Assembly: GCA_029550925.1 (NCBI GenBank)
Contig: JAKPGL010000032.1
Span: forward strand, 1 to 64,000
Direction: 5' to 3'
Length of the DNA: 64,000 nucleotides
Source of the DNA: Planctomycetota bacterium
GTDB lineage: Bacteria > Planctomycetota > Planctomycetia > Pirellulales > Thermoguttaceae
Positions 45,523-62,963 of this stretch are shown here, piece after piece (the first letter of the stretch is position 1; each line of letters starts with the position of its first letter). Under the pieces are notes generated by a model, which saw only the letters and a list, made by a program, of their open reading frames with translations, was not told where the DNA came from and ran no database searches. The position numbers and the translations under genes were made by a program.

Positions 45523-45820
45523 AATCCCAGGTAGCATTTCACCCGAATGCAAAAGGAGGCTTATTTTAGGGCGAAATCTGCCCCGGATTGTCACTGCCGC
45601 TCTAGCGGCAGTCCAGGGTCCTATGAGGCGGCTACGTTGTTATTCCTCCCAAGTAGAGGTTGCAAGAATCCTGGATTGGGCGCTTGCGCAGCAGTGGCAA
45701 GGTACTGCATCGGCTAAAATGTTACAATCCCAGGAAAACCACCCCGGAAGAGGCATCGGACGGGCGCTCGTCGGGACAGCGATCTTTAGGGTAACCTGTA
45801 CAAAAGGAAAGGATAGTAAG
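45523..45820. other. Intergenic region filled by a P2 element
   Basis: Of these 298 bp, 195 are a P2 element (45531-45725), with 8-bp target duplications on both sides. The rest leads into the GH-A-like gene. Confidence 0.5.
45531..45725 (+). repeat. 195-bp MITE-like element, family P2, copy 1
   Basis: The ends are GTAGCATTTCACCCGAATGC and GGCTAAAATGTTAC, inverted copies of one another with some changes. A perfect 8-bp target duplication, AATCCCAG, is at 45523-45530 and 45726-45733. An inner stem pairs TTGTCACTGCCGC (45588-45600) with a region near 45686-45700, with mismatches. It carries no transposase. Confidence 0.9.
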
Positions 45821-47485
45821 ATGGGCCATCTTCTTCCCCCGATTACTCGAGTAGTAAGACTGCTCACGTTTCTCGGACTGGCAATTGGCTGCGGGCAGGC
45901 TCTTAGATTGGGGGCGGAAGAGGCCCGAGCGGAGCAGAAACAGGGGGCGGCAAAGGCAGGGCCGACGGAAATGGCCGCTAAGCCTAAGAAACCTCAGCCC
46001 GCTTTGGGCATGAACCTGGCCGGACCGGCCGACTGGAATACGGAGCTCCCCTTTGTCGATGTGTTTCGGATGTCCAGGCCCTGGATCAGCCAGCGAAAAG
46101 GCGCCCCCTGGGGCAAAGGCCCGGAGCTCGATCTGGACCAGTACGGCTGGGTCAAACGCTTGGAGCCCGACTGCTGGGCCGAGACGCCGCTTTGCACTAT
46201 CGACGGCGGCCATTACCCCGGCGGTATCTATACAGTTTTCTACGAAGGCCAAGGCAAACTGGATTTCTCGGGGGCCGCTCGGATCGTCGATCAGCAGCCC
46301 GGCCGAATCCGCATCCAGGTCGATCCGCAAAAAGGCGGCTTCTTCCTCCGCCTCGTGGAAACCGATCCGAACGACTATGTACGCAACATCCGGGTGGTCA
46401 TGCCCGGTTTTGAAAACACGTACCAGAAAGAGCCGTTCCATCCCGACTTCCTGCGACGCTGGCGCGGCGTCCGGTGTTTTCGGTTTATGGACTGGATGCA
46501 TACGAACGGCTCCCCGATCCGCTGCTGGGAGGATCGGCCCACGCCGCAGCACGCCACCTTCTCGGCCAAGGGGGTGGCCTTGGAGTGGATGATCGACCTT
46601 TGCAACCGCCAGCAGGCCGACGCCTGGTTTTGTATGCCTCATCTAGCGGACGATGATTATGTGCGCCGGTTTGCCCAGATGGTAAAAGAGCGGCTCGATC
46701 CGAAACTGCGGGTCTACATTGAATACTCCAACGAAGTGTGGAACTCGCAGTTTCCGCAGACCCGCTATAGCTGGCAGCGGGCCGAAGAGCTTGGCCTGGG
46801 ACCGAAAGATCGACCCTGGGAAGGCGGCGGCATGTTCTACGCCCGGAGAAGCGTCGAAATTTTCAAAATCTGGGAGGAGGTTTTCGGCGGCACGGAACGA
46901 CTGGTCCGAGTGCTGGCCTGGCAGGCGGGCAATCAATGGTGGATGGAAAACATTGTGCTTCCGTTTGAGGACGCCTGGCGCCATGCCGATGCGTTGGCCA
47001 TTGCCCCATATATCTGGATGAATGTACCCTTGAAGGGAGAAGAACCCACCGCCGACCAGGCGGCCCGATGGACTGTTGACCAGGTGCTGGACTATCTGGA
47101 GCGGGTTTCGCTGCCCAGGGCCATGGAAGCCACCCGCCGGTCGAAAGCAGCGGCCGACAAGTTCGGACTGGTGCTGGTGGCCTACGAAGCGGGCCAGCAC
47201 ATGGTCGGCGTCGCAGGCGGGGAAAACAACGAGGCATTGACCCGGCTTTTCCAGGCAGCCAACCAGCATCCCCGCCTGGCCGACATCTATCAGAAATACT
47301 ACCAGGCCTGGACCGAAGCGGGCGGCGATCTGCTGTGCTATTTCAGCTCCGTGAGCCGATGGAGCAAATGGGGCAGTTGGGGCATCCTCCAATGGTACGA
47401 CGAAGACCCCCGGAAATCGCCGAAATTTATGTCCACGATGCGATGGGCACGCCAACTGGGCCAAAACGTCTTCCTGCCCGACTGA
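45821..47485 (+). CDS. Exported predicted clan GH-A glycoside hydrolase
   Basis: The 554-residue protein starts at MGHLLPPITRVV, with AAAGGAAAGG upstream; the frame is open further upstream through the P2 element, but that part does not look like protein. A signal peptide ends near LRLGAEEA. The sequence VYIEYSNEVWNSQFPQTR has the Asn-Glu pair expected at the end of strand beta-4 of clan GH-A (E305 as acid/base), and VLVAYEAGQHM has E456 where the nucleophile would be. Similar proteins are often annotated as cellulose-binding. The catalytic reading is an inference. Confidence 0.78.
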   Translation: MGHLLPPITRVVRLLTFLGLAIGCGQALRLGAEEARAEQKQGAAKAGPTEMAAKPKKPQPALGMNLAGPADWNTELPFVDVFRMSRPWISQRKGAPWGKGPELDLDQYGWVKRLEPDCWAETPLCTIDGGHYPGGIYTVFYEGQGKLDFSGAARIVDQQPGRIRIQVDPQKGGFFLRLVETDPNDYVRNIRVVMPGFENTYQKEPFHPDFLRRWRGVRCFRFMDWMHTNGSPIRCWEDRPTPQHATFSAKGVALEWMIDLCNRQQADAWFCMPHLADDDYVRRFAQMVKERLDPKLRVYIEYSNEVWNSQFPQTRYSWQRAEELGLGPKDRPWEGGGMFYARRSVEIFKIWEEVFGGTERLVRVLAWQAGNQWWMENIVLPFEDAWRHADALAIAPYIWMNVPLKGEEPTADQAARWTVDQVLDYLERVSLPRAMEATRRSKAAADKFGLVLVAYEAGQHMVGVAGGENNEALTRLFQAANQHPRLADIYQKYYQAWTEAGGDLLCYFSSVSRWSKWGSWGILQWYDEDPRKSPKFMSTMRWARQLGQNVFLPD

Positions 47486-47572
47486 GCCGATCCGGAGCAA
47501 CGGCATTGTTTCCGTCGTCCCCTCCGCCCTCCGGGGAGGTGATCTTTTGTTCTACACCTGGGTTCCCGGCGA

Positions 47573-48679
47573 CTATTTCACCTGCGAAGGCGATGGGGCA
47601 AGCTGGGGGTGTTTCGGTTTGGGTGGGGTGGACGGCTGTAGCATTTCTTTGTCCAGAAGCACCCGGCCGCGCAAACCGTCGTCTTCCGGCGGACGGAACC
47701 CCAGTTCCACCGGATCGCCCATGTCGAACCGGAACTTAAGCCTGCGGGACTCCTCGCTGGCCCGCCGGGCAAGCTCCGCCTTCTGGATGGTCTTTTTCTG
47801 CGGCAGGGCAAACACAATCCGATTGCCCGAGCCGGGCGCCTCCAGGATATAAACCGTCTCGAACACATCCTGATAGGTGCGGACCATCGAGTCGTACAGG
47901 GGATTGGAGGCCCGACTCCAGATATTGCCCACCACCAGTCCGCCTGGGGCCAAAGCCCGCCGGCAGGCTTGCAAGAATTCCCGGGTGGTCAACGGCGGCG
48001 GCACATTTTCGGCGCCGAAGGCGTCCAGAAAGATCACATCATACCGGAGCTTCGTCTCTTCGATGTACTTACGTCCATCTTGTACGAAGGCCCGTAGGTT
48101 TTCATCCTCCTGGAATCCGAAGAACTTTTTGGCCGCCGTTACCACCTCTGGGTCCAGCTCCACCACATCAATTTTTAGCTGAGGATAATAGTGGTGGAGG
48201 AAACTGGGGATGGTTCCGCCGCCCAGACCGACGATCAAGACCCTCTGCCGGCGCTCGGCCAGAAGGAGGCCTACCGGCATGGCCCGTGCGTAGGGCAACT
48301 CCACATGCGCCGGGTCGCCGGGTTTGACGACGCTTTGCCGGGCGCCCCACCGCTCGAACCACAGGGTGCGCAGCCCCTGGGCGTCTTCGGTTACCAGAAT
48401 ATCGTTGTACGGCGATTTTTTCTCCCAGAGGACCTTCTGGCCCGCCTCCTCCTCCGCCGCCGCCTGTCCAATAAAAATACCCGTCGGAAGAAGCCCTAGA
48501 AGGACTACCAGACATACTAGCGCCAGTTTCCTTGGTCTGACGTTTTGCAGCGTCTGGCGCTGTGGGCTTAAAGGTTTGCTTACCGAGGTTTTCCTCTCTG
48601 CCGGGAAAGCGTGTTCGTCGTTTCTCCGCCCGAGCCGCCGCTCCCAAACTTGCTTCACTCCAGAAAATAAAATATACAT
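47573..48679 (-). CDS. Membrane-anchored/exported spermidine-synthase-like protein
   Basis: The 368-residue protein starts after AGAGGAAATGGAAAA. A basic N-terminus is followed by one hydrophobic segment (LALVCLVVLLGLLPTGIFIG). The rest is an aminopropyltransferase-type Rossmann domain: VLIVGLGGGTIPSFLHHYYP, VVELDPEVV, VQDGRKYIEE and VIFLDAFGAENVPPPLTTRE. The acidic residues used for polyamine transfer are partly altered (DAFGAEN in place of DSTDPxGP), so spermidine synthesis is not certain. A Pro-rich tail follows. Similar proteins are common in planctomycetes. Confidence 0.83.
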   Translation of the reverse strand: MYILFSGVKQVWERRLGRRNDEHAFPAERKTSVSKPLSPQRQTLQNVRPRKLALVCLVVLLGLLPTGIFIGQAAAEEEAGQKVLWEKKSPYNDILVTEDAQGLRTLWFERWGARQSVVKPGDPAHVELPYARAMPVGLLLAERRQRVLIVGLGGGTIPSFLHHYYPQLKIDVVELDPEVVTAAKKFFGFQEDENLRAFVQDGRKYIEETKLRYDVIFLDAFGAENVPPPLTTREFLQACRRALAPGGLVVGNIWSRASNPLYDSMVRTYQDVFETVYILEAPGSGNRIVFALPQKKTIQKAELARRASEESRRLKFRFDMGDPVELGFRPPEDDGLRGRVLLDKEMLQPSTPPKPKHPQLAPSPSQVK

Positions 48680-48904
48680 TTTTCCATTTCCTCTTTCTGC
48701 ACGACGCCCCTCGATGCGTCCGAAGGTTCCAACGAAAAAAACCCGTACTCTGGATTCTAACCTGGGCGTTTTGCGATTCCAAGAGGCGCAGCCCGATCGG
48801 CTCGATCAACAAGAGCAAAGAGGCGCAAGGCCGGCAGCGTCTGGCCGCCGCAGACGGGGACAGAACCTATCGGGACGTTCCAATGGGACCGGTGCGATTT
48901 CCTA

Positions 48905-49711
48905 TCAAAAGGGTTTCCCGGAGCACATCCTATATAGAAATATCCCGGCGGCCACGCCCACGTTCAAGGAATCCATAGGATGGCGCATCGGGATCGTCAG
49001 TCGAACGTCGCAAAGTCGCTCGACATACGGCGGCAAGCCCTCAAACTCATTGCCCAGAAGCAAGGCGGCCCGCTGGGGCCAGGAAAACTCCTCCAGGGGT
49101 GTGGCCTCCGGATCGACAACCGCCGCCGCCCGAAGGACCTGCCAGCGGTCGCCTAACTGGCGAAGATCATGAACGAGATGTTCCGTCCTGGCCCACCGGA
49201 TGTGCAACACACCGCCCATCGAAAGACGAATCGACCGCCGAGAAAGCGGATCGACCGTTTGCGGTCCCAAAAGCACTACATCGACGCCTAGGGCCGTCGC
49301 ACTGCGAAAGATCAGGCCCAGGTTTTCCGGCTGGTTGATGGCCGGCAGGACCGCCAGGCGCAACGGCTGGGTTAAGGAAAATTGATCTAACACCTCCGCC
49401 CAGGTGGGCGTTTGCGCCGGTCGGCGTCCCAAGGCCAACACTCCCCGATGAAATGGATAGCCGACAATCTGTTGAATCAGTTCTTCTGAGGCCGCAAACA
49501 CCGGCGCCCGATCGGCGACGATCTGGGCCATCTCGTCGGCGTGTTCGTCGGCCGCCAAAACCGACTCCACCGGATACGAGCTATCCAGAAGCCGCAATGC
49601 GACCAGTTTGCCCTCGGCAAGGAAGATGTTCTCCCCCCGTAGGGTGCGATCCGGCAGGTTCCGATAGCCAGCAATCCGTGGATCGTCGAGCGATTCAATC
49701 CGCTGGATCAC
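48905..49711 (-). CDS. TrmH/SpoU-family RNA 2'-O-methyltransferase
   Basis: The 268-residue protein starts with GTG after GAGG. The N-terminal part resembles the substrate-binding domain of this family. The SPOUT domain has the three motifs: INQPENLGLIFRSATALGVD, LLLGNEFEGLPP and LTIPMRHPMDSLNVGVAAGI. It transfers a methyl group from SAM to a ribose in rRNA or tRNA; the target base is not evident. It follows the esterase gene by 63 bp and may share its transcript. Confidence 0.93.
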   Translation of the reverse strand: MIQRIESLDDPRIAGYRNLPDRTLRGENIFLAEGKLVALRLLDSSYPVESVLAADEHADEMAQIVADRAPVFAASEELIQQIVGYPFHRGVLALGRRPAQTPTWAEVLDQFSLTQPLRLAVLPAINQPENLGLIFRSATALGVDVVLLGPQTVDPLSRRSIRLSMGGVLHIRWARTEHLVHDLRQLGDRWQVLRAAAVVDPEATPLEEFSWPQRAALLLGNEFEGLPPYVERLCDVRLTIPMRHPMDSLNVGVAAGIFLYRMCSGKPF

Positions 49712-49774
49712 AGGCAGACCTCTGCAATATCTGGAAAGAGCCTTTGAAATGGCGGCAGAAGGGTTGATCGGGAA

Positions 49775-51022
49775 TTATGGTTTGGCCGGTGGTTGGGCCG
49801 AGGCGTCAGGCGCCGGCAAACCAAAGTACCGACATACAAAGCGGTAAATCTCCTTCCGAACCGGTTCCGGAAAATCATGGCCGCAGTCCGGATGATAGGC
49901 GATCAGATGCTCTGTCGCCCGGTAGAGTTGGTAAATCTTGCTGGCCTCGGCCATGACTTTTTTGACGCCGCCGACGTCGAAGTTATCGTCATGGAGCGGA
50001 GAATTGGTCAAAAACGGCCGGGGGGCCAGGGCGCCGATCAATTCATAGTAATCAAACGGCACCCGATCCGGATCTTTGCCAAATCGGGAACCAATCAGAG
50101 GCATATATCGGTCTTGGACATAGCCATCCAATCGTCCGCCGTAATAATCATGAAAAGGTGTGAATCCGCAACTGGACACAATCACTTTGAGCCGGGGTTC
50201 AAACACCGCGGTATAGATGGCGTTATGCCCGCCCAGGGAATGGCCGATGCAACCGATCCGCTTCGGGTCCACCTCAGGCCGGGCCTCCAAGAGATCCACC
50301 GCACGGATATTGTTCCAGATGGCTTTCATCGTGCCGCTTGCATAGTGGGCCCCCTGGGTGTGGAAGTTATAGGGATATTCGCCAAACGAAGGATAGTCCG
50401 GCGCTAGACACACAAACCCAAGCTGGGCCAACTCATGGGCGTAGTGGAGCGACGGGGAACCGCCCAGGCCGACCGGCTCGTCCTTGCCGATCGGTATCGT
50501 CTGGTGCAGACAGAGCATGGCGGCGGTTCGGCCCCCCAGGTTTTTGGGGATCAGAAGCCAAGCCGGGACCCGGTCGCCTGGCTCCGGCTGATAAGTCAGT
50601 TTAATTCGCCGATACTGCGGCGTTTCCTCGGTTTTCAGCATCTGGACATCCAACGGGGTTTGGCGGAACTTCTCCGGCAGCGGCCCGGTTGCTTCCTGAA
50701 ACCCTTGCAAGATGTCGGCCCGACGCCGTTGCCAATCTTCCGGCGTGCGGACGGGGTGTTCTCGGCCTTGGGCGTCCCAATAGATGAGCAAATTTTTATG
50801 ATCTTTCTTCAGGACCGGTTTTTCGGGTTTGCGGCCTTCGGAAGGCTCGGACTTTGGTTCGTCCTTTTCGACGGCGACCTCCAGAGCCAAGCCCCAACCC
50901 GACGTACACCCAGACGGCGGCCAAAGCGTCCAGCCGCCGTCTGGCCGGCCAAGCCAAACCATTCCTGCCAGGCAACCGCCCCACCATAACCAGCACCAAC
51001 GCCGACCAAAGGGTGCTTTCAT
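49775..51022 (-). CDS. Exported alpha/beta-hydrolase (dienelactone/acetylxylan-esterase-like)
   Basis: The 415-residue protein starts at MKAPFGRRWCWLWWGG, with CAGGAGCATCTCG upstream. A hydrophobic leader is followed by a charged linker. The hydrolase core has the nucleophile elbow GHSLGGHN, and candidate Asp (SPLHDDNFDV) and His (YHPDCGHDFP) complete the triad. LICLHQT-like (AAMLCLHQTIPIGKDEP) and FVCLAPDYPSFGE blocks are typical of planctomycete acetylxylan-esterase-like proteins. The substrate is unknown. Confidence 0.88.
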   Translation of the reverse strand: MKAPFGRRWCWLWWGGCLAGMVWLGRPDGGWTLWPPSGCTSGWGLALEVAVEKDEPKSEPSEGRKPEKPVLKKDHKNLLIYWDAQGREHPVRTPEDWQRRRADILQGFQEATGPLPEKFRQTPLDVQMLKTEETPQYRRIKLTYQPEPGDRVPAWLLIPKNLGGRTAAMLCLHQTIPIGKDEPVGLGGSPSLHYAHELAQLGFVCLAPDYPSFGEYPYNFHTQGAHYASGTMKAIWNNIRAVDLLEARPEVDPKRIGCIGHSLGGHNAIYTAVFEPRLKVIVSSCGFTPFHDYYGGRLDGYVQDRYMPLIGSRFGKDPDRVPFDYYELIGALAPRPFLTNSPLHDDNFDVGGVKKVMAEASKIYQLYRATEHLIAYHPDCGHDFPEPVRKEIYRFVCRYFGLPAPDASAQPPAKP

Positions 51023-51071
51023 CCGAGATGCTCCTGAGCATGGTCTGAGAAGCTTGATTACGCCCACCATT

Positions 51072-51269
51072 TTACCTGCACGACCACCAGGCCAAAAGAC
51101 TCAGCAGGATGATCCAACCGGCCAATAGGGCCGCCGTGAGCCAAAGAAACAGCCGTTGGCCTGCCGTCGGGGGCGAAGCGGCCTGGCAAGACGTCTGGGG
51201 CATGGTCCCGGCGGGCTTTTCAAAGCCGCTGCGGGAACCTTTGTTCTCCGAACGTGCGGAACGGGACAT
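51072..51269 (-). CDS. Small C-terminally anchored membrane protein
   Basis: The 65-residue protein starts after AGGAAAAGGGTGTTGCC. Residues 1-38 are polar, and residues about 40-62 form one membrane helix (LFLWLTAALLAGWIILLSLL). It sits between the Minf_1886 gene (51 bp upstream) and the esterase gene (49 bp downstream) on the same strand, so a shared transcript is likely. No family is recognised. Confidence 0.62.
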   Translation of the reverse strand: MSRSARSENKGSRSGFEKPAGTMPQTSCQAASPPTAGQRLFLWLTAALLAGWIILLSLLAWWSCR

Positions 51270-51320
51270 GGCAACACCCTTTTCCTACTGTTTGCCGACG
51301 GCTTTCGCCGGTTCCAGAAC

Positions 51321-51791
51321 CTATGCGGCGCCGGAGCTGTGGGCGTCTTGCAGTTGAATGCGGAACTGATCGACAAAGGCGGTCTGAAAATCATAGACAT
51401 TATCAAAGTCTTCGATCCGATCCTCTGGAGTTTTCCGCATCTGGCCGATTTTAATCAAATTGAACACGATCTCTCCGAAATCCCGCGTGGTAGAAACGCC
51501 CCAACTGTTCAGCACCGTCTTGGCCATATAGCCGTATTGCCGCAACGCATATTGCCGGATCGCTTCGCACAGCTCCTGGCCGGTTACATGGCGGCCCACC
51601 GGACTTTCTGTTTCTCCAGGGTTGCCTTCTCCGGCATCGCCGGCGGGAATCGGTTCACTGGGGGCTTCCCGGCCCATCCGAAGTTTCTCCTGGGCAAAAT
51701 GTAACGCCTCGAACACAAACAAATACGCATCCAGTTTGTACCGTTTGTCTTCTTGGACCAATTGGGCAATCGCTCGCAACGGATCAAACAT
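51321..51791 (-). CDS. Minf_1886-family protein
   Basis: The 156-residue protein matches the conserved planctomycete/verrucomicrobial family (TIGR04138-like): an N-terminal helix pair YKLDAYLFVFEALHFAQEKL, then HVTGQELCEAIRQYALRQYG and WGVSTTRDFGEIVFNLIKIG. A Gly/Pro-rich insert lies between. Function is unknown. It follows the RicT gene by 122 bp. Confidence 0.88.
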   Translation of the reverse strand: MFDPLRAIAQLVQEDKRYKLDAYLFVFEALHFAQEKLRMGREAPSEPIPAGDAGEGNPGETESPVGRHVTGQELCEAIRQYALRQYGYMAKTVLNSWGVSTTRDFGEIVFNLIKIGQMRKTPEDRIEDFDNVYDFQTAFVDQFRIQLQDAHSSGAA

Positions 51792-51913
51792 AGCAGTAAA
51801 ACAGAACGCAGAAATTATAAGGTAACATGGTCTATTCTTAACATTTTAGCCGTGCGGAGGAATCCGCCCCGCAATCGACTTTCCGTGGACCGGGGACCAG
51901 AACCTCCCGGGGC

Positions 51914-52759
51914 TTACTCCGGTAAGAGTTCCTCCGGGGCTTCCGGCGTCCGGCTTTCGACCAGCACGGTGATTTCTTCTGGCGTGAAATGCCGTTGCAC
52001 CCCATCGTCGGTTTCCACCAGGACCCGACGCGGCAGAATTTCTACGCCGATCACCCGGCCCGGTCCAGAAGGAGTGCTCACCTGAGACCCGATCGTCGGC
52101 AATTGCTGAAGGATTTCGTCGTAGATCGGATATTCGTACCGAAGACAACATTTCAATCGGCCGCATCGGCCGGAGATTTTCGTTGGGTCCAAGGTGGATT
52201 TCTGGACCTTCGCCATTTTCATCGACACCGGCGGCATGACCGCCAAATGGGTATTGCAACAGACCGGGCAACCGCAATCGCCGTAATCGGCCAGCAGCTT
52301 CGCTTCGTCCCGCACGCCGATCTGACGCATTTCGATCCGGGTCTTGAACTCGGCGGCCAACTGGCGAACCAATTCACGAAAATCTACCCGAGCGTCGGCC
52401 AAATAATAGACAATGATCCGCTCGCCGCCGAAGATATGCTCTACATCCACCAGTTTCATCTGCAGGCCCAGTTGATCCACGTACCGCTGGCAGATTTCGA
52501 GTTCCTCTTGTTCGTGGGCGTGGATACGACGAAGCTCGTTGGCGTCTTCAGCGGTCATGATGCGAAGGATTTGGCCTTGGGGCGCAGAAGCCAACTGGGA
52601 CCGAATGGCTTCGTCCGCCTCCCGGAGGATTTGGCCCACCTCCAAACCCCGTTCCGTACACAGGATCACCTTATCTCCTCGGGCGAATCGGCTATTGTCC
52701 GGCCCGCTAAACAGGCCCAAAAACCGCATCGCCCCAAACCGCACCACGTAACTAGCCAT
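51914..52759 (-). CDS. PSP1-domain protein (RicT/YaaT family)
   Basis: The 281-residue protein has the PSP1 C-terminal domain with its cysteine set: C162, C164, C167, C168 and C199, C204, C205. The typical block is PVSMKMAKVQKSTLDPTKIS, followed by GRCGRLKCCLRYEYP. In Bacillus, RicT joins RicA and RicF in an Fe-S complex that aids RNA maturation by RNase Y. No ricA or ricF is visible here. The ribosome site is AAGG. Motifs like the P2 ends occur on both sides (51839-51852 and 52981-52994). Confidence 0.92.
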   Translation of the reverse strand: MASYVVRFGAMRFLGLFSGPDNSRFARGDKVILCTERGLEVGQILREADEAIRSQLASAPQGQILRIMTAEDANELRRIHAHEQEELEICQRYVDQLGLQMKLVDVEHIFGGERIIVYYLADARVDFRELVRQLAAEFKTRIEMRQIGVRDEAKLLADYGDCGCPVCCNTHLAVMPPVSMKMAKVQKSTLDPTKISGRCGRLKCCLRYEYPIYDEILQQLPTIGSQVSTPSGPGRVIGVEILPRRVLVETDDGVQRHFTPEEITVLVESRTPEAPEELLPE

Positions 52760-53304
52760 ACCGCAGCCTTCGCAAAACCGAAATACCTCCGCCGAACAGC
52801 GAAACCTGTTCCCGCTCCGACGGCAGACGAACAGAGCAACCCGTCCTCCCTACAAAAGCAAAGACCCAGTTTTTACACCGTTCCGCTATTCTGGTTTCCC
52901 GCCGATGCGGGAACAAGCCTGGACCACCCCGTATGCAGCAGTAACATCCCTCTGCACCATCCGGGTGGGATACTTCTCCGGGCTGAAATGTTACCGCAAA
53001 CGATAGAATATAGCCCTTTTGGTTCTTTTTGCGAAGTAAAAGAGCAAAAGAACTTGGCAAAATAGGCCAAACAGGAAAGATAGACAAACACAATCAAACC
53101 CCAAAGGTTCCATTCCCTCTAAAGTTCGCAGAACTTCCCGCAACACTGAGGTGCAACATGCTCCCCAGAAGGGGCAAAAAGAAGGTTAAATGCCCTCCCC
53201 TTGGGCCAAGTCGTTCTTCGTAGTCTTTACTCCGAGGGAGGCTGGGCCAGAAGGCCCACCAAGGGGGGGAATGTCTTCTACCTATCTCTTGGAAGGGCTG
53301 CTCT
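52760..53304. other. Intergenic region with possible P2 relic
   Basis: The 545-bp gap has a TTCCCGC/GCGGGAA hairpin (52896-52913) and GGCTGAAATGTTAC (52981-52994), which matches a P2 terminus. Together they may be a decayed copy. No gene is supported. Confidence 0.35.
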
Positions 53305-53991
53305 CTATTTCAAATAATCGGCCTGGATTTGGTAGAGCAAACCGGGTTCTTTATCCTCCGGGGAACGGATATGGAAGATGCCGCCTACGCCGCATCGGCG
53401 GTTGGTAAACCGGGTCTTCAGCCCATGAACGAGTTTCACATCCACAAGTTCGGTCGGTTTGAGTTTGGGCATACAGAACTGACAATGGGTAAGTGTGGGC
53501 ACCAGGGTAAACCGTTCGATGCCTATCGTCTGCCGACCTGGATACATATAGCCTCGGATGAATACTCGTTTGCCTTCCAATTCTTTGGCCGACGGCGGAG
53601 GGTCGTCTGCTGCAGCGCCGGGCAGAGGTTTCAACATATCATAACTGATCAGATAATAGCCGGGCGGAGCGGCCACAAAATAAAGATACCCATGCCAAAC
53701 CAAACACACGGCGCCCAGGACAGCAGACAATCCCATTCCCACCTTGGCCGCTATGGCGCCGGTCAATTCGTCGGGGAATCGGTCGATCCGCGTAAGCGCC
53801 GCCAGCCCCAAACCGATTCCCAGCATAGGCAAGATCAAGAGCCATTCAAAATAGGCGCCCAACCAAGCCAATGCGCCGCAAACGAGGCTTCCGACGGCCA
53901 ACGCGGAGACGCGTCGATAGGGGCGGGCCGCCTCGAGACTTTCGGCCTCTTGGTCCAGATAACCGATTTCTGCGTCTGTCAATGGATCCAT
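53305..53991 (-). CDS. Membrane protein with DUF3299-like C-terminal domain
   Basis: The 228-residue protein has three hydrophobic helices in its N-terminal half (ALAVGSLVCGALAWLGAYFE, LLILPMLGIGLGLAALTRI and VGMGLSAVLGAVCLVWHGYL). A soluble domain follows with KRVFIRGYMYPGRQTIGIER, then FTLVPTLTHCQFCMPKLKPT, the pattern of DUF3299. Its start is 73 bp after the ABC permease stop, so it is the third gene of that operon. DUF3299 genes stand beside LolD/FtsX-like ABC genes in other bacteria too, where metal (zinc) uptake has been proposed. Metal use here is only an inference. Confidence 0.75.
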   Translation of the reverse strand: MDPLTDAEIGYLDQEAESLEAARPYRRVSALAVGSLVCGALAWLGAYFEWLLILPMLGIGLGLAALTRIDRFPDELTGAIAAKVGMGLSAVLGAVCLVWHGYLYFVAAPPGYYLISYDMLKPLPGAAADDPPPSAKELEGKRVFIRGYMYPGRQTIGIERFTLVPTLTHCQFCMPKLKPTELVDVKLVHGLKTRFTNRRCGVGGIFHIRSPEDKEPGLLYQIQADYLK

Positions 53992-54064
53992 CAGGCTTTC
54001 GCACCCTTGTCGATAGACTGTTTCGGCCCCTCCAGGAGGGCGCCGATAGGGAAGAAAGGTCTTT

Positions 54065-55363: not shown

Positions 55364-55522
55364 CCGCCATTCTCCTTCCGATCAATCCGGCCGCCTAGCA
55401 GGCTGAACCAAAGCGGTTCGGTTCTGCCAAAGAAAAACTCCGGTTGCCTTGTTTGGGTTGAAAAAAACTCCTGCAACGTCTGGCGTGTTACGCCGGGCCG
55501 ACCTCTCCAAGGCCGGCGGGAT

Positions 55523-56227
55523 TTAGGCCTCCGCGGCGGCCCCGTTAGGCTTGGTCGGCTTTTTGAGCACCAGATTGAAATCCTCCAGCCGATCCACACG
55601 CGGAAATTGCCGGGCCACGTCCATATTGTGGGTTACCAGCAGCAGGGCCACCTTCTCTTCTTGGCAGGTCTGCCGCAATAGATCGACGATTTGCTGCTGA
55701 TGGCCTGCATCGACGTTGGCGGTCGGTTCGTCGGCCAGGATCAGCGAAGGCCGATTCGCCAACGCTCGGGCCACCGAAACCCGCTGCTGTTCCCCCACCG
55801 ACAAGGCCGTCGGCTTATGGTGCAACCGATGCCCCAGACCAACCCGTTCCAAAAGCTGCTTGGCCCGCGCCCGATCCACCCGCCCACGAGCAAACCGCAT
55901 CCCCAACATCACATTCTCCAGGGCCGTAAAACCGGGCAATAAATTGAACGTCTGAAACACATATCCAATCGTCTCCGCTCGAAACCGATCCGACTCCGCC
56001 TCGCTCATCAGGGTAATGTCCCAACCATTGACCTTCACATGGCCCGAGTCGGGACGACTGATCCCGGCAATGACGTGCAGCAGCGTCGTTTTGCCGCACC
56101 CGCTGGGACCCACCAACACCATCTGTTCCCCCGGCCCTAGCTCAAACCACGGAATATCCAAAATCGGCAGCGGCGAGCCGTCCGGCTCCAGGAACGACTT
56201 TTTCACCTCTTTGAGTTGAAGAACCAT
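55523..56227 (-). CDS. LolD/MacB-type ABC transporter ATP-binding protein
   Basis: The 234-residue ATPase has Walker A GPSGCGKTT, the Q-loop in VFQTFNLLPGF, the signature LSVGEQQRVSVARAL, Walker B LILADEPTANVD and the switch His in VTHNMD. ATG 56227 follows GGGGAACATT; a TTG at 56239 is less likely. It is the first gene of a three-gene operon with an FtsX-type permease and a DUF3299-like protein. Confidence 0.94.
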   Translation of the reverse strand: MVLQLKEVKKSFLEPDGSPLPILDIPWFELGPGEQMVLVGPSGCGKTTLLHVIAGISRPDSGHVKVNGWDITLMSEAESDRFRAETIGYVFQTFNLLPGFTALENVMLGMRFARGRVDRARAKQLLERVGLGHRLHHKPTALSVGEQQRVSVARALANRPSLILADEPTANVDAGHQQQIVDLLRQTCQEEKVALLLVTHNMDVARQFPRVDRLEDFNLVLKKPTKPNGAAAEA

Positions 56228-56787
56228 AATGTTCCCCAAAAAAGACTAGTCGGAAATCAATGCGACTTCTGCCCACCCCTTGCCGTAAACGAAACCACCC
56301 AAATAATGGTCTGCACCCCCCCTTAAATGTGTACTTCAAGCCCTCCCCACCGAAAAAGGGCATATCATTTACGGAATTTGTCTTCCTGAAGTTCGATTTT
56401 CCCTCGAAAAGTTTTTAGAGCCTCTAATACAATGCACTTTCCCACCGATCCCACCCAAAATGTGTACGAGCACCCCGTTGCGGCTTCGATTTTATCAGAG
56501 GTTCCCACTCCAAACAGGGGGAGGTAAACACCACTCAATAGTGGTCTCCCGAAAATGGCGCAGAGTTCGTCGGCCCCTGTTTCTCCCTGATTTTCCGGAC
56601 GGGGGCGATCCCCTTGAGCAATGGGGTTCCTCCGGGAGGCAAGAAAACTTCCATCGACCTAAACGACCGGAATTGATACAATCCGGCGATGCTTTTATTC
56701 CCGGCCTGAGTGGCGCGTCGGTTTTTCCAAAGCAATCGTTTCGGAAAATCTCGCCCGTTGGTCTTTTTCATCCATAAGGGGACATGG
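56228..56787. other. Divergent intergenic region before hldE
   Basis: The 560-bp gap separates the ABC operon and hldE. No gene is supported. An AGAGCCTCTAA sequence near 56414 resembles the ends of P3 elements. AAGGGG stands before the hldE start. Confidence 0.4.
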
Positions 56788-58284
56788 ATGTCCATGAGTT
56801 TAGCAGAACTGCTTTGCCAGCAGCGTCGGCCCCGGCTATTGGTCGTGGGCGATCTGATGTTGGACCGATACACCTGGGCGGATTGCACCCGGATCAGCCC
56901 AGAAGCGCCGGTCCCGGTACTTCAGACCGGGCGGCGGGAGAATCGACTGGGTGGGGCGGGCAGTGTGGCGGCCATGGCCGCTCGGTTGGACGCCGAGGTC
57001 TGTTTGGCCGCCGTGGTGGGGGCCGATTCGGCCGGTCGCCGACTGCTTCGCCTTCTGCAACAAGCCCAGATCGACGCTCAGTCGGTTTTGTGTTTGCCCG
57101 ATCGCCGAACCACCGTCAAACATCGTCTCCTGGGCCGATCCCAAGGTCGAACGCCGCAGCAACTCCTTCGGCTGGACCGGGAAGAGAGTCGGCCGATCGA
57201 CGCCGCCGCGGCCAATCGGCTTTTGGAAGCGGTTTGGCAGCGGTTGGACTGGGCCGACTGTATCTTGCTAAGCGACTATGGCAAAGGGGTTTGTTCTGGG
57301 GCATTTGTCCCGCAGTTGGTCGCCATTGCCCGGTCGGCGGGGACGCCGGTCTTGGCGGACCCTGCCCGCTCGGCCGATTATCGCCGGTATGCCGGCTGTA
57401 GGTGTTTGTTACCCAATCGGGTAGAGGCAGGCTTGGCCCTGGGGATGAAGATTGCCGCGGTGCAGGATGGACTAACGGCGGCCAAACGGCTGCTGGATTT
57501 CGGCGTGCAATCGGCGGCGGTCAAAATGGACCGGGACGGCATTGTCTGGACGGATGGCCAGCAGGAGGCCCGCCACTTTCCTGCTCGGCCCAGAGAGGTC
57601 CATGACGTAACCGGCGCGGGCGATATGGTGTTGGCCGCCCTCGGATATGCGATTGCTTCCGGCGCCGATTGGCCGACCGCCCTGGAACTGGCCAACCTGG
57701 CCGCCGGGTTGGAAGTGGCCCGCATCGGCTGTACGCCTATCCATCGAACCGAATTGCGAACCGAACTCGTCCGCCTCGGAGGAATCGAAGCCAGCCGGGC
57801 CAAAATCCTCCCCTTGGAACTCCTGCTGAGCGAATTGGCCTACTGGCGGGCCAAAGGCCGACGGATCGTACTGACCAACGGTTGTTTCGACCTCCTCCAT
57901 CCGGGCCATCTCTCCACGTTAGAGTTTGCCAAACAGGCGGGAGACGTTTTGGTGGCGGCGGTAAACACCGATCGAAGCGTCCGGGAACTGAAAGGCCCCA
58001 GCCGACCCATCCTCCCCCAAGACGACCGGGCGCGAATGCTGGCCGCCTTGGCTTGCGTGGATTACGTGGTGCTTTTTGACTCGGCCAGCGTCCTGCCGGT
58101 GATCCAACGGATCCGACCAGACGTACTGGTCAAAGGAGGCAAAGAGGGACTGGCTGGCGTGGTCGGTCGGGAGTTCGTCTTAAGCTATGGCGGCCAGGTG
58201 CTGCTTGCCCCCGCCGCCGCCGACTATTCCACCACCGCTCTTATTGATCAGGTCGCTTCCAAGGCCAAGACGCCTACCGCCTGA
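56788..58284 (+). CDS. hldE: Bifunctional heptose-7-phosphate kinase / heptose-1-phosphate adenylyltransferase
   Basis: The 498-residue enzyme makes ADP-heptose for lipopolysaccharide. The N-terminal ribokinase-type kinase (about 1-330) has VVGDLMLDRYTW and DVTGAGDMVLAAL with catalytic D279. The C-terminal nucleotidyltransferase (about 355-498) has LTNGCFDLLHPGHLSTLEFA with the HxGH motif (H370-H373). The start is the Met of MSMSLAELLC, with AAGGGG upstream. Length is close to the family norm (about 475 residues). It stands alone here. Confidence 0.96.
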   Translation: MSMSLAELLCQQRRPRLLVVGDLMLDRYTWADCTRISPEAPVPVLQTGRRENRLGGAGSVAAMAARLDAEVCLAAVVGADSAGRRLLRLLQQAQIDAQSVLCLPDRRTTVKHRLLGRSQGRTPQQLLRLDREESRPIDAAAANRLLEAVWQRLDWADCILLSDYGKGVCSGAFVPQLVAIARSAGTPVLADPARSADYRRYAGCRCLLPNRVEAGLALGMKIAAVQDGLTAAKRLLDFGVQSAAVKMDRDGIVWTDGQQEARHFPARPREVHDVTGAGDMVLAALGYAIASGADWPTALELANLAAGLEVARIGCTPIHRTELRTELVRLGGIEASRAKILPLELLLSELAYWRAKGRRIVLTNGCFDLLHPGHLSTLEFAKQAGDVLVAAVNTDRSVRELKGPSRPILPQDDRARMLAALACVDYVVLFDSASVLPVIQRIRPDVLVKGGKEGLAGVVGREFVLSYGGQVLLAPAAADYSTTALIDQVASKAKTPTA

Positions 58285-58347
58285 GAAGGCGGAAAAGTTC
58301 GTTCCGCCCCTACCGTCGTCTGTCCCCGCGGCAAGTTGTTAACCAGG

Positions 58348-58369
58348 CCAGTCTAACAGACTAGGTTAC
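58348..58369 (+). repeat. Short palindromic repeat, family P5, unit 1
   Basis: CCAGTCTAACAGACTAGGTT forms a dyad (AGTCT/AGACT) and precedes AC. Confidence 0.6.
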
Positions 58370-58399
58370 GTACCCTCCTCTGTCCACACGGCGACCAAA

Positions 58400-58432
58400 C
58401 CAGTCTAATGGACTGGGTTACAACACAGCATC
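58400..58432 (+). repeat. Short palindromic repeat, family P5, unit 2
   Basis: CCAGTCTAATGGACTGGGTT is an inverted repeat (CCAGTC/GACTGG). The following ACAACACAG is shared with the copy at 43437. Confidence 0.65.
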
Positions 58433-58655
58433 TTTCATTGGATGAACTCTTACCGCTCCGCCCATCCGCCCGCCTATAGACACGCCCCACCGTCTTGGAT
58501 AGCATAATTGCCAGGCGGCAATTTTTTCAAATGCGGAGTCGTTGCGAGCGGAGATGGCGGCTGGCGTCGTTAAAGCGGCTTTTTGTACACAAGCATTTAT
58601 CGGAAAACGCCTCTTTGGGAAGGTCTTTCTACTGCGTTCTTTGAGGAGAATTCTC

Positions 58656-59837
58656 ATGAACATGCGTATTTCTCGTCGGCAACTGTTGCAAGGGGCGGCA
58701 GCGGCTACCGCAAGCTGGAGCATCGGATGGATCTGGACAAGGCGGGCGCAGGCAGCACCGAAAATCGAACTGCTGGAAACCAAGGTCATTTCGCATCAAT
58801 CGGATCTTTATCACGGTTGGCCCACCGTGGCCCGCCGACGCAACGGCCAATTGCTTTTGGTCTATTCCGGCGGCCGGGAAGAACATGTCTGCCCGTTCGG
58901 CAGGGTGGAAATGATGCGATCCGACGATGAAGGCCAGACCTGGGGGTGGCCCTGTGTGCTGATGGATACCGAAATCGACGACCGCGACGCCGGCGTGCTG
59001 GAAACCGCCCAGGGCAGCATCCTGGTAACTACGTTCACTTCGTTGGCCTATGAAAGCATCTTGACCCGGGAGGAACGCCGCCTGGCCGAGGGCAAACCAA
59101 GCTGGGCCCCAGCTCGGCTTCGTCGTTGGCAGGCCGCCCACCGACGGTTGCCCGCAGAAAAGCGGGATGCGATGCTCGGCCAATGGATGCTCCGATCCAC
59201 CGACGGCGGCGCCACCTGGTCTGCCCCGTATCGGCTTCCGGTCAATAGTCCTCATGGGCCGTTCCAACTCCGAGACGGTCGCTTGCTCTATGCAGGCAAA
59301 GAACTTTGGCACGCCAAGGAACGAAATGGCGTGTGCGAATCGACCGACGACGGACAAACCTGGAAATGGATTGCCGAAATCCCCACCCGGCCCGGCGACG
59401 ACCATCGTGAATATCACGAGCTGCACGGGGTCGAATCGGCCGACGGTCGCTTGGTCGTCCAAATCCGAAACCACAACAAAGCCAACCCAAGTGAAACCCT
59501 TCAGACCCATTCGACCGACGGCGGCAAAACCTGGGCGGTACCCTATGAGATCGGCGTTTGGGGGTTGCCGTCGCACCTGCTTCGGCTCCGAGACGATCGG
59601 CTTCTGATGACCTACGGGCATCGTCGGCCGCCCTTTGGTGTGCAGGCCCGGCTGAGCGAAGACCACGGCCAGCACTGGTCCGAAGCGATCCTGATCGCCC
59701 AGGACGGCGTTGGCGGCGACCTGGGCTATCCCAGCACGGTGCAACTATCGGACGGCTCGCTGCTTACGGTTTGGTACGAACTCATGAAAGACAATCCTCG
59801 GGCCGTGCTACGACAGGCAAAATGGAAATTGGTGTAA
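58656..59837 (+). CDS. Tat-exported sialidase-like beta-propeller
   Basis: The 393-residue protein starts at MNMRISRRQLLQG with TTGAGGAGAATTCTC upstream. SRRQLLQG followed by a hydrophobic stretch is a twin-arginine signal. The mature part is a sialidase-type six-bladed propeller with Asp-box repeats: SDDEGQTWGW, STDGGATWSAP, STDDGQTWKW and STDGGKTWAVP. A first-blade arginine (GGRE) could be part of the active site. The substrate may be a sialic acid or another acidic sugar. The stop codon lies within the left end of a P2 element. Confidence 0.88.
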   Translation: MNMRISRRQLLQGAAAATASWSIGWIWTRRAQAAPKIELLETKVISHQSDLYHGWPTVARRRNGQLLLVYSGGREEHVCPFGRVEMMRSDDEGQTWGWPCVLMDTEIDDRDAGVLETAQGSILVTTFTSLAYESILTREERRLAEGKPSWAPARLRRWQAAHRRLPAEKRDAMLGQWMLRSTDGGATWSAPYRLPVNSPHGPFQLRDGRLLYAGKELWHAKERNGVCESTDDGQTWKWIAEIPTRPGDDHREYHELHGVESADGRLVVQIRNHNKANPSETLQTHSTDGGKTWAVPYEIGVWGLPSHLLRLRDDRLLMTYGHRRPPFGVQARLSEDHGQHWSEAILIAQDGVGGDLGYPSTVQLSDGSLLTVWYELMKDNPRAVLRQAKWKLV

Positions 59838-60018
59838 AAATTAGCCGAATGCAGTACCTTGTCACTGCCGCTCAAGCGCCCCATCTAGGCTTCTTGCAGC
59901 CTCTACTTGGGAGGAATAACAATGTAGCCGCCTCATAGGACCCTGGATTCCAGCTAGAGCGGCAGTGACAATATCGGGCAAATTTCGAGCCTCCTTTGCA
60001 TTCGGCTAAAATGTTACC
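59834..60018 (-). repeat. 185-bp MITE-like element, family P2, copy 3
   Basis: In reverse orientation this copy aligns with the P2 elements at 45531 and 62758. Its inner inverted repeat TTGTCACTGCCGCT (59858-59871, approximately) pairs perfectly with AGCGGCAGTGACAA (59958-59971). No target duplication is seen, and one end is mutated, so it is older. The first TAA of this end is the stop codon of the sialidase-like gene. Confidence 0.85.
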
Positions 60019-60069
60019 GATATGCGATAACGATATGCGAGCGACGTGCAATAGATAGGAGACCTAGCA

Positions 60070-61338
60070 ATGGCTACTTTCGGCAATCTGACGCGACGAG
60101 ATTGGCTTCGGCTGACGGCGGCTTTTGGCGCTGGCGGCCTTTTTGGTTCTAGCGGGCTTCGGGCGGCCCCACCCGACACGAAACTGCCCCCTTGCCGGGC
60201 AATTACCAAGGGACCGAAGTTCCACTGGTTCGGCTACTACGACAAATGGCAGTTCGATCCCACGGATCGCTATGTGCTGGGCATGGAGGTGGATTTCGAG
60301 CATCGCTCGCCCAAGCCCGACGATGTGGTCCGGATCGGCATGATCGACCTGGCCGACGGCGACCGTTGGACCGAACTGGGCGTCAGCACGGCCTGGTGCT
60401 GGCAGCAGGGATGTATGCTTCAGTGGCGGCCCGGTTTCGCCGACGAAATCCTCTGGAACGATCGGCAAAAGGACCGCTATGTTTGCCATATTCTGAACAT
60501 AAAGACCGGCCAGAAGCGGACCCTGCCGATGGCCATCTACGCTGTTAGTCCCGACGGCCGATGGGCCGTTAGCACCGATTTTCGCCGCCTGGGCGACATG
60601 CGTCCCGGCTACGGCTATAACGGCATCCCCGACCCCTACGCCGACCAATTGGCGCCGAAAGATTCCGGCATTTGGCGGGTCGATCTCCAGAGCGGCAAAA
60701 CGGAGCTGATCATCAGCCTGGCCGAGGTGGCCAAGATACCGTGGCCGCAGGCCGAGTTCGGCCAATCGAAGCATTGGTTCAACCACTTGCTGGTCAATCC
60801 GGATGGAAGTCGGTTTGTGTTCCTCCACCGTTGGCGTCTGCCTGAGAAGCCGGGGCATAGGACACGAATGATCACCGCCGCTCCGGACGGCTCTAATCTC
60901 CGGATTATCGACGACAACGGCGTGACGAGCCATTTCATCTGGCGGGACCCGAAACATATCCTGGTTTGGACCCGCAAACGAAAACCGGACGGCTTCCTCC
61001 TGTTGGAAGATAGTCCTGGCGGCAGCGTGGAAGAAGTCCTGATGACCGGCGACGGCCATTGCAACTACCTGCCTAACCCTCGATGGTTCGTCTCCGACAC
61101 CTATCCGGACCGGGAGCGCAAACAGAATCTCTATCTTTACGATACCGAGCGGAAAGAGCGTATCCCGTTGGGTGGGTTTTATCAAGGGCCCGAGTATCGA
61201 CAGCCGCCGTTCTATGAATGGCGCTGCGACCTGCATCCGCGCACCAGCCGCACCGGTAGATACATTTGTATCGACTCGGTCCACGAAGCCGGCCGACAAC
61301 TCTATCTGATTGACCTTAGCAACATCATCCAGGCTTGA
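60070..61338 (+). CDS. Tat-exported oligogalacturonide-lyase-like beta-propeller
   Basis: The 422-residue protein begins with LTRRDWLRLTAAFGAGGLFG, a twin-arginine signal. The mature part is a WD40/TolB-like propeller resembling oligogalacturonate lyases: KFHWFGYYDKWQFDPTDRYV, AVSPDGRWAV and HWFNHLLVNPDGSRFVFLHR. Repeated His residues could bind a metal as in that family. Substrate and activity are inferred. Its stop abuts the stop of the convergent PEP-CTERM gene. Confidence 0.82.
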   Translation: MATFGNLTRRDWLRLTAAFGAGGLFGSSGLRAAPPDTKLPPCRAITKGPKFHWFGYYDKWQFDPTDRYVLGMEVDFEHRSPKPDDVVRIGMIDLADGDRWTELGVSTAWCWQQGCMLQWRPGFADEILWNDRQKDRYVCHILNIKTGQKRTLPMAIYAVSPDGRWAVSTDFRRLGDMRPGYGYNGIPDPYADQLAPKDSGIWRVDLQSGKTELIISLAEVAKIPWPQAEFGQSKHWFNHLLVNPDGSRFVFLHRWRLPEKPGHRTRMITAAPDGSNLRIIDDNGVTSHFIWRDPKHILVWTRKRKPDGFLLLEDSPGGSVEEVLMTGDGHCNYLPNPRWFVSDTYPDRERKQNLYLYDTERKERIPLGGFYQGPEYRQPPFYEWRCDLHPRTSRTGRYICIDSVHEAGRQLYLIDLSNIIQA

Positions 61339-62697
61339 TCATTGCCGCCGCCAGACCAATAGTCCCAGTACAGCGAAACCGAAGGCGGCCAAGATTCCTG
61401 TAGCCGGTTCCGGCACAGGATTGGCGATGATCTGAAGCCCGGCGATCCGAGCCCGGTCGTCCAGCGGCGTGTTGCCGTTGGTTAGATACACGTTAAAGTT
61501 CGGCCCGAAGAAATCGCCCAGGACCACATAGTTGCTGGTCCAACCCAGTTCCAGGGCGGCAATGGCTTCGTCCTGCGTGCGGGCGGTGCTTTCCACCAGA
61601 CCAAGACTGGGCGTGTAATTGCTCCCCTGGGCTTCATAGGCCCACTTGGTATTGCTATTGCCCAGCGAATCCGTTACCCGGATCTCAAACGCCCCGCCGC
61701 TATCCGTGTCGTAATAAACAATCACCTTGTAGCCGAACGGATTGGCAAACGCCTCGTCCAGCCCCACCACCCGGACCGGATTGCCAGCCGCATTGTCCAA
61801 ATAGCCTTTCAGCAGCAGGCCGTCCTGGGTGCTGGTATCCGCCCCGGAGTACCAGGTATTGGACACATCGACGGTGATCCGGGCGGTGGTATCCACGCCA
61901 TTAGAATCTTTTAACGTCAGATTGAAGACATCCGGATTGTTCCAGGCTGGGCCCATGATATTGTTCCAATTCGGCAGAGGCACAGCCCCGGCGGTGCCGG
62001 TAACCTGATAGGCGCCGTAATCGTTCGACCCGCCGCCCACGAAATTCACGCTGATCCGGCCGCTCGATAGCGGCGGTTGGCCTTCGTCTATATCCAGATG
62101 GAACACCCGATCCCCATTAGCGCCGCTGGGATAGCCGTTGTGCAAAATCAGCGTGGTATCCCCCACTCCGTTGGCCCCGGAACTGTAGGCTACACCCCAG
62201 GGATAGGCCATGTTGTTGGTCGTATTGGAAGTAACAAATCCGTTGCCCGCCGCGCCGACATCAAACCCATAGACTTTGTTCGGGGCCAATTTGACCGGCA
62301 GATCGAAAATAAACGTGATATAATCCCCCGGAACAATCGAAACCGCATTGGCCGTTTCCGTAAAGACCGGCGTAAAGGTCGTGCCGCTGACTTCGCCGAC
62401 TCGAATGGTAAACGTCGTCCCGGTGGTGGTATTGTTGAGATTTTGGAGTGTAACCGCTTTGAGCGTATAACCACCTGAATAGGCGCCGGTGGTAAAGGTC
62501 TGGCCTTGTACGGGGCGGTTGGACCAGATGTGGCCCTGGTCGCCGCCGAGGTCTTGCCCGCCCACCAGTTGGGCAATGTCCGCTCCATCTACGGTGGGCG
62601 CGGTTTGCGAGACCTGCATGATAGCCCCTTGCGTCTGGCCGAGCCACGTAAGGCCGAAATAACCGAGCCCCATCACCAGCAAAACGATTCGTTTCAT
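61339..62697 (-). CDS. PEP-CTERM exported protein
   Basis: The 452-residue protein starts at MKRIVLLVMGLGYFG with AGGAGGGTATGCC upstream, nearly the same leader as the LamG/PEP-CTERM gene. After a signal peptide the mature part is beta-rich with Asn/Gly/Thr-rich segments. NPVPEPATGILAAFGFAVLG followed by an RR end is the sorting signal for exosortase. No recognised catalytic domain. Its 3' end touches that of the lyase-like gene. Confidence 0.86.
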   Translation of the reverse strand: MKRIVLLVMGLGYFGLTWLGQTQGAIMQVSQTAPTVDGADIAQLVGGQDLGGDQGHIWSNRPVQGQTFTTGAYSGGYTLKAVTLQNLNNTTTGTTFTIRVGEVSGTTFTPVFTETANAVSIVPGDYITFIFDLPVKLAPNKVYGFDVGAAGNGFVTSNTTNNMAYPWGVAYSSGANGVGDTTLILHNGYPSGANGDRVFHLDIDEGQPPLSSGRISVNFVGGGSNDYGAYQVTGTAGAVPLPNWNNIMGPAWNNPDVFNLTLKDSNGVDTTARITVDVSNTWYSGADTSTQDGLLLKGYLDNAAGNPVRVVGLDEAFANPFGYKVIVYYDTDSGGAFEIRVTDSLGNSNTKWAYEAQGSNYTPSLGLVESTARTQDEAIAALELGWTSNYVVLGDFFGPNFNVYLTNGNTPLDDRARIAGLQIIANPVPEPATGILAAFGFAVLGLLVWRRQ

Positions 62698-62757
62698 GGC
62701 ATACCCTCCTTTTGAAAGATCTGGGAAACACCTAGTTAACAGATACATTTTTCATTT

Positions 62758-62953
62758 GTAACATTTCAGCCGAATGCAAAGGAGGCTTATTTTAGGAAGA
62801 AATTTATCCAGCATTGTCATTCCCGCGCAAGCTCTCAATCCAAGGGCTAATGTGGCGGCTACATTGTTATTCCTCCTATGTAGCGGCTGCAAGACGCCTG
62901 GATTGGGCGATTGCGCAGGAATGACAAAGTACTGCATTCGGCTAAAATGTTAC
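62758..62953 (+). repeat. 196-bp MITE-like element, family P2, copy 2
   Basis: The ends are GTAACATTTCAGCCGAATGC and GCATTCGGCTAAAATGTTAC. A perfect 8-bp target duplication, TTTCATTT, is at 62750-62757 and 62954-62961. The inner stem pairs TTGTCATTCCCGCGCAA (62814-62830) with TTGCGCAGGAATGACAA (62911-62927), 16 of 17 positions. Confidence 0.92.
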
Positions 62954-62963
62954 TTTCATTTTA

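What the first reader, a model, noticed from the sequence alone, without database searches (positions are those of the whole stretch)
45523..62961. A 185-196 bp MITE family (P2) with perfect 8-bp target duplications
Three dispersed copies (45531-45725, 59834-60018 reversed, 62758-62953) share ends near GTAACATTTyAGCCGAATGC. Two are flanked by perfect 8-bp direct repeats, AATCCCAG and TTTCATTT. This is direct evidence of transposition by a trans-acting enzyme with an 8-bp cut. No transposase is in the window. Copy 3 lacks a duplication and has a changed end, so insertions differ in age.
Basis: partly seen in the sequence, partly recalled or inferred. Interest (0 to 1): 0.72.

Follow-up and report, generated by a model that had tools for sequence, protein, structure and literature searches.

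The report
IS66-type miniature transposon family
The three look-alike DNA pieces are genuine copies of a small, gene-less jumping element that is present in large numbers in this bacterium, most likely moved by the enzyme of an IS66-family insertion sequence with the same ends.

Summary
In detail: copies at 45531-45725, 59834-60017 (reversed) and 62758-62953. The first and last have perfect 8-bp duplications; the reversed one has none and a changed end.

The family is large. The own genome holds 423 matches to the 20-bp end (up to 3 mismatches; control 0). Of 43 full copies collected, 37 have clean ends; 20 of those 37 carry a direct repeat of exactly 8 bp, none of 5-7 or 9-12 bp. One of five loci tried shows base-precise empty sites, in two congeners.

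The likely enzyme is a single-gene (ISBst12-like) IS66 transposase. In the same genome two IS66 copies begin with exactly the same 20-bp end. A 68%-identical relative elsewhere is a complete 1507-bp IS with GTAACACGTTAGCC ends and a perfect 8-bp duplication. Short elements with such ends, other interiors and 8-bp duplications occur in other genera and families of the order.

So it is a new MITE family of a known kind, with a parent family (IS66) for which my searches found no MITE described. Movement by this enzyme is inferred. No complete transposase gene is in this draft genome, and the 30 IS66 genes checked in relatives by family search have other ends.

The parts
45531..45725 (+). MITE copy 1, 195 bp, ends GTAGCATTTCACCCGAATGC / GTAACATTTTAGCCGATGC
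45523..45530 (.). 8-bp target duplication AATCCCAG, left of copy 1
45726..45733 (.). 8-bp target duplication AATCCCAG, right of copy 1
59834..60017 (-). MITE copy 2 (reversed), 184 bp, no duplication, one end changed to GTAAAAATTAGCC
59835..59837 (+). TAA stop codon of the BNR-repeat gene 58542-59837, formed by bases 2-4 of the inserted element's end
   Evidence: congeners stop at the same codon without the element
62758..62953 (+). MITE copy 3, 196 bp, ends GTAACATTTCAGCCGAATGC / GTAACATTTTAGCCGAATGC (19 of 20 alike)
62750..62757 (.). 8-bp target duplication TTTCATTT, left of copy 3
62954..62961 (.). 8-bp target duplication TTTCATTT, right of copy 3

Best explanation
The copies belong to a high-copy MITE family: about 196 bp, no transposase gene, 20-bp terminal inverted repeats GTAACATTTYAGCCGAATGC. 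They spread by transposition that duplicates exactly 8 bp of target. The enzyme is most likely the single-gene (ISBst12-like) IS66-family transposase whose IS begins with the same 20 bp. Shown: ends, abundance, 8-bp duplications, one locus with empty sites, and an IS66 transposase frame directly inside an identical end in the same genome. Inferred: that this transposase binds the MITE ends and moved the copies, and that the family arose from IS ends joined around other, palindromic DNA. Insertions are rarer inside long reading frames than random positions.
For: 423 end matches, control 0. Direct repeat of exactly 8 bp in 20 of 37 clean copies, 0 at 5-7 and 9-12 bp; 1 of 1332 mismatched flank pairs. 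Empty sites at G000:C14:42759 in G001 and G002. PF03050 transposase inside a 20-of-20 identical end on C224, and a deleted copy with the same end on C149. Complete IS in L162, 1507 bp, 8-bp duplication GGCTTCGC. Elements with the same kind of ends and 8-bp duplications in G071, G034, G006, G001, G002, G158, G389, G056. Published ISDge4, ISBst12 group, active: ends GTGACTACTCAGCA / GTAACTGCTCAGCA, 8-bp repeat (PMC12898284, passages).
Against: No complete intact transposase is seen in the draft genome: C224 runs off its contig, C149 is deleted, the C232 piece ends early. Likeness of MITE and IS beyond about 23 bp is slight. In the congeners G001 and G002, rich in ends (102 and 122), no close TnpC was found, nor in 101 loci around ends. 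None of 30 IS66 genes of relatives fetched by family search has the end motif on its left side, and the two right-side matches are at the 6-mismatch limit. Of the 11 TnpC relatives only 2 have the motif at both ends, 1 of these with a duplication. 17 of 37 clean copies lack a perfect repeat.
Confidence: 0.87

Rival explanations
1. A MITE family moved by a different transposase that also makes 8-bp duplications (such as IS256, ISL3 or IS1595 type; these 8-bp values are recalled), with the identical IS66 ends a coincidence or a relic.
For: I searched the genome for no transposase family other than IS66. In G001 and G002 ends are many but no close TnpC was found.
Against: 20 of 20 identity with the end directly outside an IS66 transposase on two contigs; GTAA start and 8-bp repeat are what papers give for IS66 (passages).
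Confidence: 0.08
2. A functional structured element (RNA hairpin, terminator or regulatory DNA) kept by selection, the repeats being spread by recombination and not by transposition.
For: Whole-length hairpin, copy 3 at -92.4 kcal/mol, z -9.8; mostly outside long reading frames.
Against: Exact 8-bp duplications and empty sites. The alignment of 37 copies gives a weak consensus structure (-10 kcal/mol, covariation term 0.06, 3 of 27 pairs with changes on both sides), although mosaic arms make this test weak. No Rfam match in the window. A local use of single copies after insertion is not excluded.
Confidence: 0.03
3. Assembly artefact or chance resemblance.
For: Several ends lie close to contig ends.
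Against: Control pattern 0; related elements with 8-bp duplications in separately assembled genomes of other genera.
Confidence: 0.01

Closest known systems
ISDge4 of Deinococcus geothermalis (IS66 family, ISBst12 group; PMC12898284, passages read)
   Same: Single transposase gene, ends GTGACTACTCAGCA / GTAACTGCTCAGCA resembling GTAACATTTCAGCC, 8-bp direct repeat; reported to transpose.
   Different: A full autonomous IS, not a miniature element.
IS66 family in general (PMC11946415, passages)
   Same: GTAA start of the inverted repeats, 8-bp direct repeats.
   Different: Typical ends are given as GTAAGCG; the ends here read GTAACA.
MITECca01 of Cardinium (PMC9769881, passages)
   Same: MITE with many copies (169) tied to a parental IS by its ends.
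   Different: Parent is IS982 family.
MITEPye1 of Paracoccus yeei (PMC11578231, passages)
   Same: Miniature element with inverted and direct repeats, linked to an IS by its ends, intergenic, folds into a long stem-loop.
   Different: Parent is IS1182 family; 1-3 copies.
Chunjie of Geobacter uraniireducens and Correia/ERIC elements (review PMC10969869, passages)
   Same: Short, palindromic, mostly intergenic repeats; reported copy numbers (38 complete and 57 partial; over 120; 711 at most) span the range seen here.
   Different: The review passages name no IS66 link; IS66 does not occur in its text.

Membership tests
MITE | Short (under about 500 bp) and without a transposase gene | tested here: met
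   43 full copies, 173-231 bp; too short to encode a transposase
MITE | Terminal inverted repeats | tested here: met
   GTAACATTTYAGCCGAATGC at both ends; decayed in some copies
MITE | Target duplication of fixed length | tested here: met
   exactly 8 bp in 20 of 37 clean copies
MITE | Many dispersed copies | tested here: met
   423 end matches; 40 near-full-length matches listed
MITE | Absent from the same place in relatives (empty site) | tested here: met
   one of five loci clean, in G001 and G002; the other four not base-precise
MITE | Mobilised in trans by the transposase of an IS | not testable with these tools
   needs a transposition assay
IS66 family, ISBst12 group (the proposed partner IS) | PF03050 transposase | tested here: met
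   C224 93.7 bits, cut-off 23.1; L162 and L163
IS66 family, ISBst12 group (the proposed partner IS) | Single transposase gene between the ends, no tnpA/tnpB | tested here: met
   L162: the frame of 480 codons is the IS66 transposase; other long frames there are alternative readings of the same DNA. Not checkable on C224, which is cut by the contig end
IS66 family, ISBst12 group (the proposed partner IS) | GTAA-type ends and 8-bp duplication | tested here: met
   L162: GTAACACGTTAGCC both ends, GGCTTCGC twice. L163 has both ends but no duplication
IS66 family, ISBst12 group (the proposed partner IS) | Complete, intact copy in the host genome | tested here: inconclusive
   C224 open to the contig end, C149 deleted, C232 piece ends early
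IS66-derived MITE | MITE ends identical to those of an IS66 element in the same genome | tested here: met
   20 of 20 on C224 and C149; little likeness beyond about 23 bp

The most novel reading that the evidence does not exclude
An order of planctomycete-like bacteria carries a class of minimal transposons defined only by about 20 bp of single-gene IS66 ends, with exchangeable interiors; in this genome the interiors are assembled from small GTCATTCCCGC-N4-GCGGGAATCCAG palindromes. If so, the ISBst12-type transposase needs little more than these short ends, and IS66 ends have been the vehicle that spreads such palindromes.
Probability: 0.3. Interest if true: 0.6.

Novelty: new member of a known kind. 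Interest (0 to 1): 0.42.

Why it matters
It links an abundant MITE family to IS66, whose transposition one paper calls insufficiently characterised (PMC12898284, passage) and for which my searches showed no MITE. Since the elements share little more than about 20 bp with the IS, they suggest how little DNA the enzyme needs at its ends and offer ready substrates for a test.

Tried and rejected
Empty sites at the three window copies were not obtained. Copy 1: G001 and G002 lack about 1 kb there, including the DUF4405 gene and a 127-bp repeat as well as the MITE. Copy 2: G002 has about 310 bp of unrelated sequence, and in G001 the two sides lie on different contigs. Copy 3: G002 lacks the MITE and the neighbouring 95-bp palindrome, but the flanks do not align to the base. 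The C73:43416 locus was searched but its junction was not aligned.

Empty sites inside other repeats: joined flanks of the 43 copies against held DNA gave only self matches and one doubtful 77% match. End motif in viral contigs: 0 exact. Rfam in the window: 0. Conserved RNA structure: weak, and uninformative because the arms are mosaic. The reverse-strand frame 45722-46642, which ends inside copy 1, I first took for a gene; congener alignments favour the plus-strand frame, so I dropped it. IS66 genes of relatives as parents: of 41 PF03050 matches listed, 30 were fetched and scanned, and none has these ends on the left. An earlier count said 18 of 48 paired ends have 8/8 repeats; a recount gives 16 of 48.

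Full report
Observation. 45531-45725 and 62758-62953 have perfect 8-bp duplications (AATCCCAG, TTTCATTT); the reversed copy has none and a changed end. Identical 8-mers at that spacing occur in 22 of 200,000 random draws from the window.

Size of the family. The window is part of contig C173 of a 4.9-Mb draft genome in 233 contigs. A search with the best copy listed 40 near-full-length matches; only 40 of 336 first-look candidates were scored, and the reversed window copy is not among them, so this is a lower bound. The 20-bp end occurs 423 times (217 + 206) with up to 3 mismatches, the control 0 times. With two ends per element that means on the order of 210 or more elements, of this and of sister types with the same ends (estimate). 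In 22 stretches taken without regard to matches (227,652 bases, five short ones reading N) there were 9 ends, about 4 per 100 kb against about 8.6 genome-wide, so the spread is uneven.

Duplications. I collected 43 distinct full copies, the three of the window included; they were found by likeness to two window copies and are not a random sample. Six were set aside for altered last bases; one of these is the reversed window copy, whose end my extension placed one base off. None of the six has an 8/8 repeat. Of the 37 left, 20 have a direct repeat of exactly 8 bp, none of 5, 6, 7, 9, 10, 11 or 12 bp; 23 match at 7 or 8 of 8; 14 match less well. Left and right flanks of different copies agree at 8/8 in 1 of 1332 pairings. 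In an independent listing of paired ends in held DNA, all sizes, 16 of 48 have 8/8. The target is A/T-rich in the middle with a preference for G at its first and C or G at its last base. Median identity to the consensus is 89%, so the family is not freshly amplified.

Empty site. Of five loci tried, one is clean. G000:C14:42759-42954 carries GAAAAACC on both sides; the same place in congener G002 reads CAAACCAA GGAAAACC GGACTTTTTC and in G001 CAAACCAG GAAAAACT GTTCTGTTTT, a single target (7 of 8 alike in each) and no element. The window copies are not at the compared places in the congeners, but without base-precise junctions.

Enzyme. PF03050 (IS66 transposase) gave three places in the own genome. 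On C224 an open frame begins 56 bp inside a perfect 20-bp end and runs to the contig end. On C149 a second copy has the same perfect end but a large internal deletion and a stop. C232 holds a transposase C-terminus that ends earlier than in L162, then a right end with 3 mismatches. C4 has a further IS66 relative with a looser end (5 mismatches) and a shortened gene. In 60 genomes the C224 protein found close relatives only in G000; three others matched at 28-29%. The GTDB scan gave 11 loci. L162 (68%, MAG labelled Candidatus Binatia) is a complete 1507-bp element: GTAACACGTTAGCC at both ends, GGCTTCGC twice, a 480-codon frame with PF03050. L163 (60%, Planctomycetota MAG) has GTAACACTTCAGCC at both ends but no duplication. 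L161 (Pirellulales MAG, 81%) shows a right end TTAACACTTTAGCC only. The other eight have the motif on one side with 5-6 mismatches or not at all. C224 and L162 continue GCAGTTGATCTTG inside the left end, one MITE end continues GCAGTACCTTGTCA. Of 41 IS66 matches in relatives, 30 were fetched; none has the end motif on the left, and two show other GTAA or GTGA ends with 8-bp repeats. So the partner is a subgroup of IS66, not IS66 at large.

Spread. The end with up to 2 mismatches occurs in 18 of 98 relatives besides G000; with up to 1 mismatch (19-base pattern) in 31 of 395 other genomes of the order. In the fetched loci the ends pair into short elements: 11 pairs (5 with 8/8, one with 7/8, five less) and 13 pairs among 30 loci (6 with 8/8, four with 7/8, three less; 17 loci without a pair; two of the pairs repeat). 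Perfect duplications: G071 (222 and 306 bp), G034 (159), G006 (163), G001 (161), G002 (187), G158 (165), G389 (173), G056 (183), and one more in G000 (205). G158, G389 and G071 belong to other families of the order. Lengths and the sequences just inside the ends differ; I did not align the interiors between genera.

Interior. The consensus folds end to end (-96 kcal/mol; copy 3 -92.4, z -9.8). By eye in the alignment, the arms hold small palindromes GTCATTCCCGC-N4-GCGGGAATCCAG in alternative states combined differently in different copies, and the centre of C96:2127-2320 is inverted. In held DNA of this genome such cores occur 59 times (one site counted twice through overlapping stretches), control 0; 47 of 59 lie within 130 bp of an end match (up to 6 mismatches), against 1119 of 13,427 random positions. 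This points to recombination or capture rather than simple deletion of the IS; inference.

Genes. Of 39 sites with enough flank, 9 lie in a spanning reading frame of at least 180 codons, against 81% of 3000 random positions; at 150 codons 19 of 39 against 88%. The reversed window copy supplies the TAA stop of the BNR-repeat gene from its GTAA end; congeners stop at the same codon without it.

Organism. Not named by the tools. 65 matches to SBP_bac_10, 0 of 14 control genomes, and several planctomycete records among the IS relatives, suggest Planctomycetota; that this family marks planctomycetes is recalled. Pirellulales is a guess.

Literature. Searches with IS66 and MITE terms, planctomycetes and MITE terms and IS66 with ISBst12 or GTAA listed no IS66-derived MITE that I could recognise. 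I saw passages only of PMC10969869, PMC9769881, PMC3281130, PMC3189936, PMC9208149, PMC11578231, PMC6053426, PMC2246112 and PMC12888890; the MITEs there are tied to other families, or to none. The library lacks most subscription papers and ISfinder was not searchable, so absence from print is not proven.

Verdict. A real, well-supported MITE family of a known kind, with a newly proposed parent family and a wide, varied presence in the order.

Noticed in passing
34541-34635 and 62962-63057: A second, about 95-bp palindromic repeat (TAAGAGGCTCTAACAAAACGG... at one end...CGTTTTGTTAGAGCTTCTAA at the other); two copies about 90% alike, the second directly beside the duplication of MITE copy 3.
   Followed up: no
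38-164 and 44851-44977: A 127-bp repeat in two opposite copies, 98% alike, with CTGGAGTTTTGC / GCAAAACTCCAG ends; the second copy seems flanked by TTCGAG on both sides, so perhaps another miniature element.
   Followed up: partly
G000:C149 and C232 (L111, L076): The flanks of the decayed IS66 pieces carry AACTGGAGTTTTGCAAAT and CAAAACTCCAGTT, like the ends of the 127-bp repeat, so these may be one IS nested in such a repeat.
   Followed up: no
58542-59837: BNR-repeat gene whose stop codon is provided by the inserted MITE end.
   Followed up: partly
44767-45973: About 1 kb with a DUF4405 gene (45010-45522), the 127-bp repeat and MITE copy 1, missing from both congeners at this place.
   Followed up: partly
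held stretches of G000: Many ATTCCCGC-N4-GCGGGAAT palindromes, 47 of 59 near IS66-type ends. They recall the dRS3 repeats of Neisseria (recalled, not tested).
   Followed up: partly
G000:C113:20252-21107 and G000:C88:33103-35003: Clusters of three or more paired-end elements within 1-2 kb.
   Followed up: no
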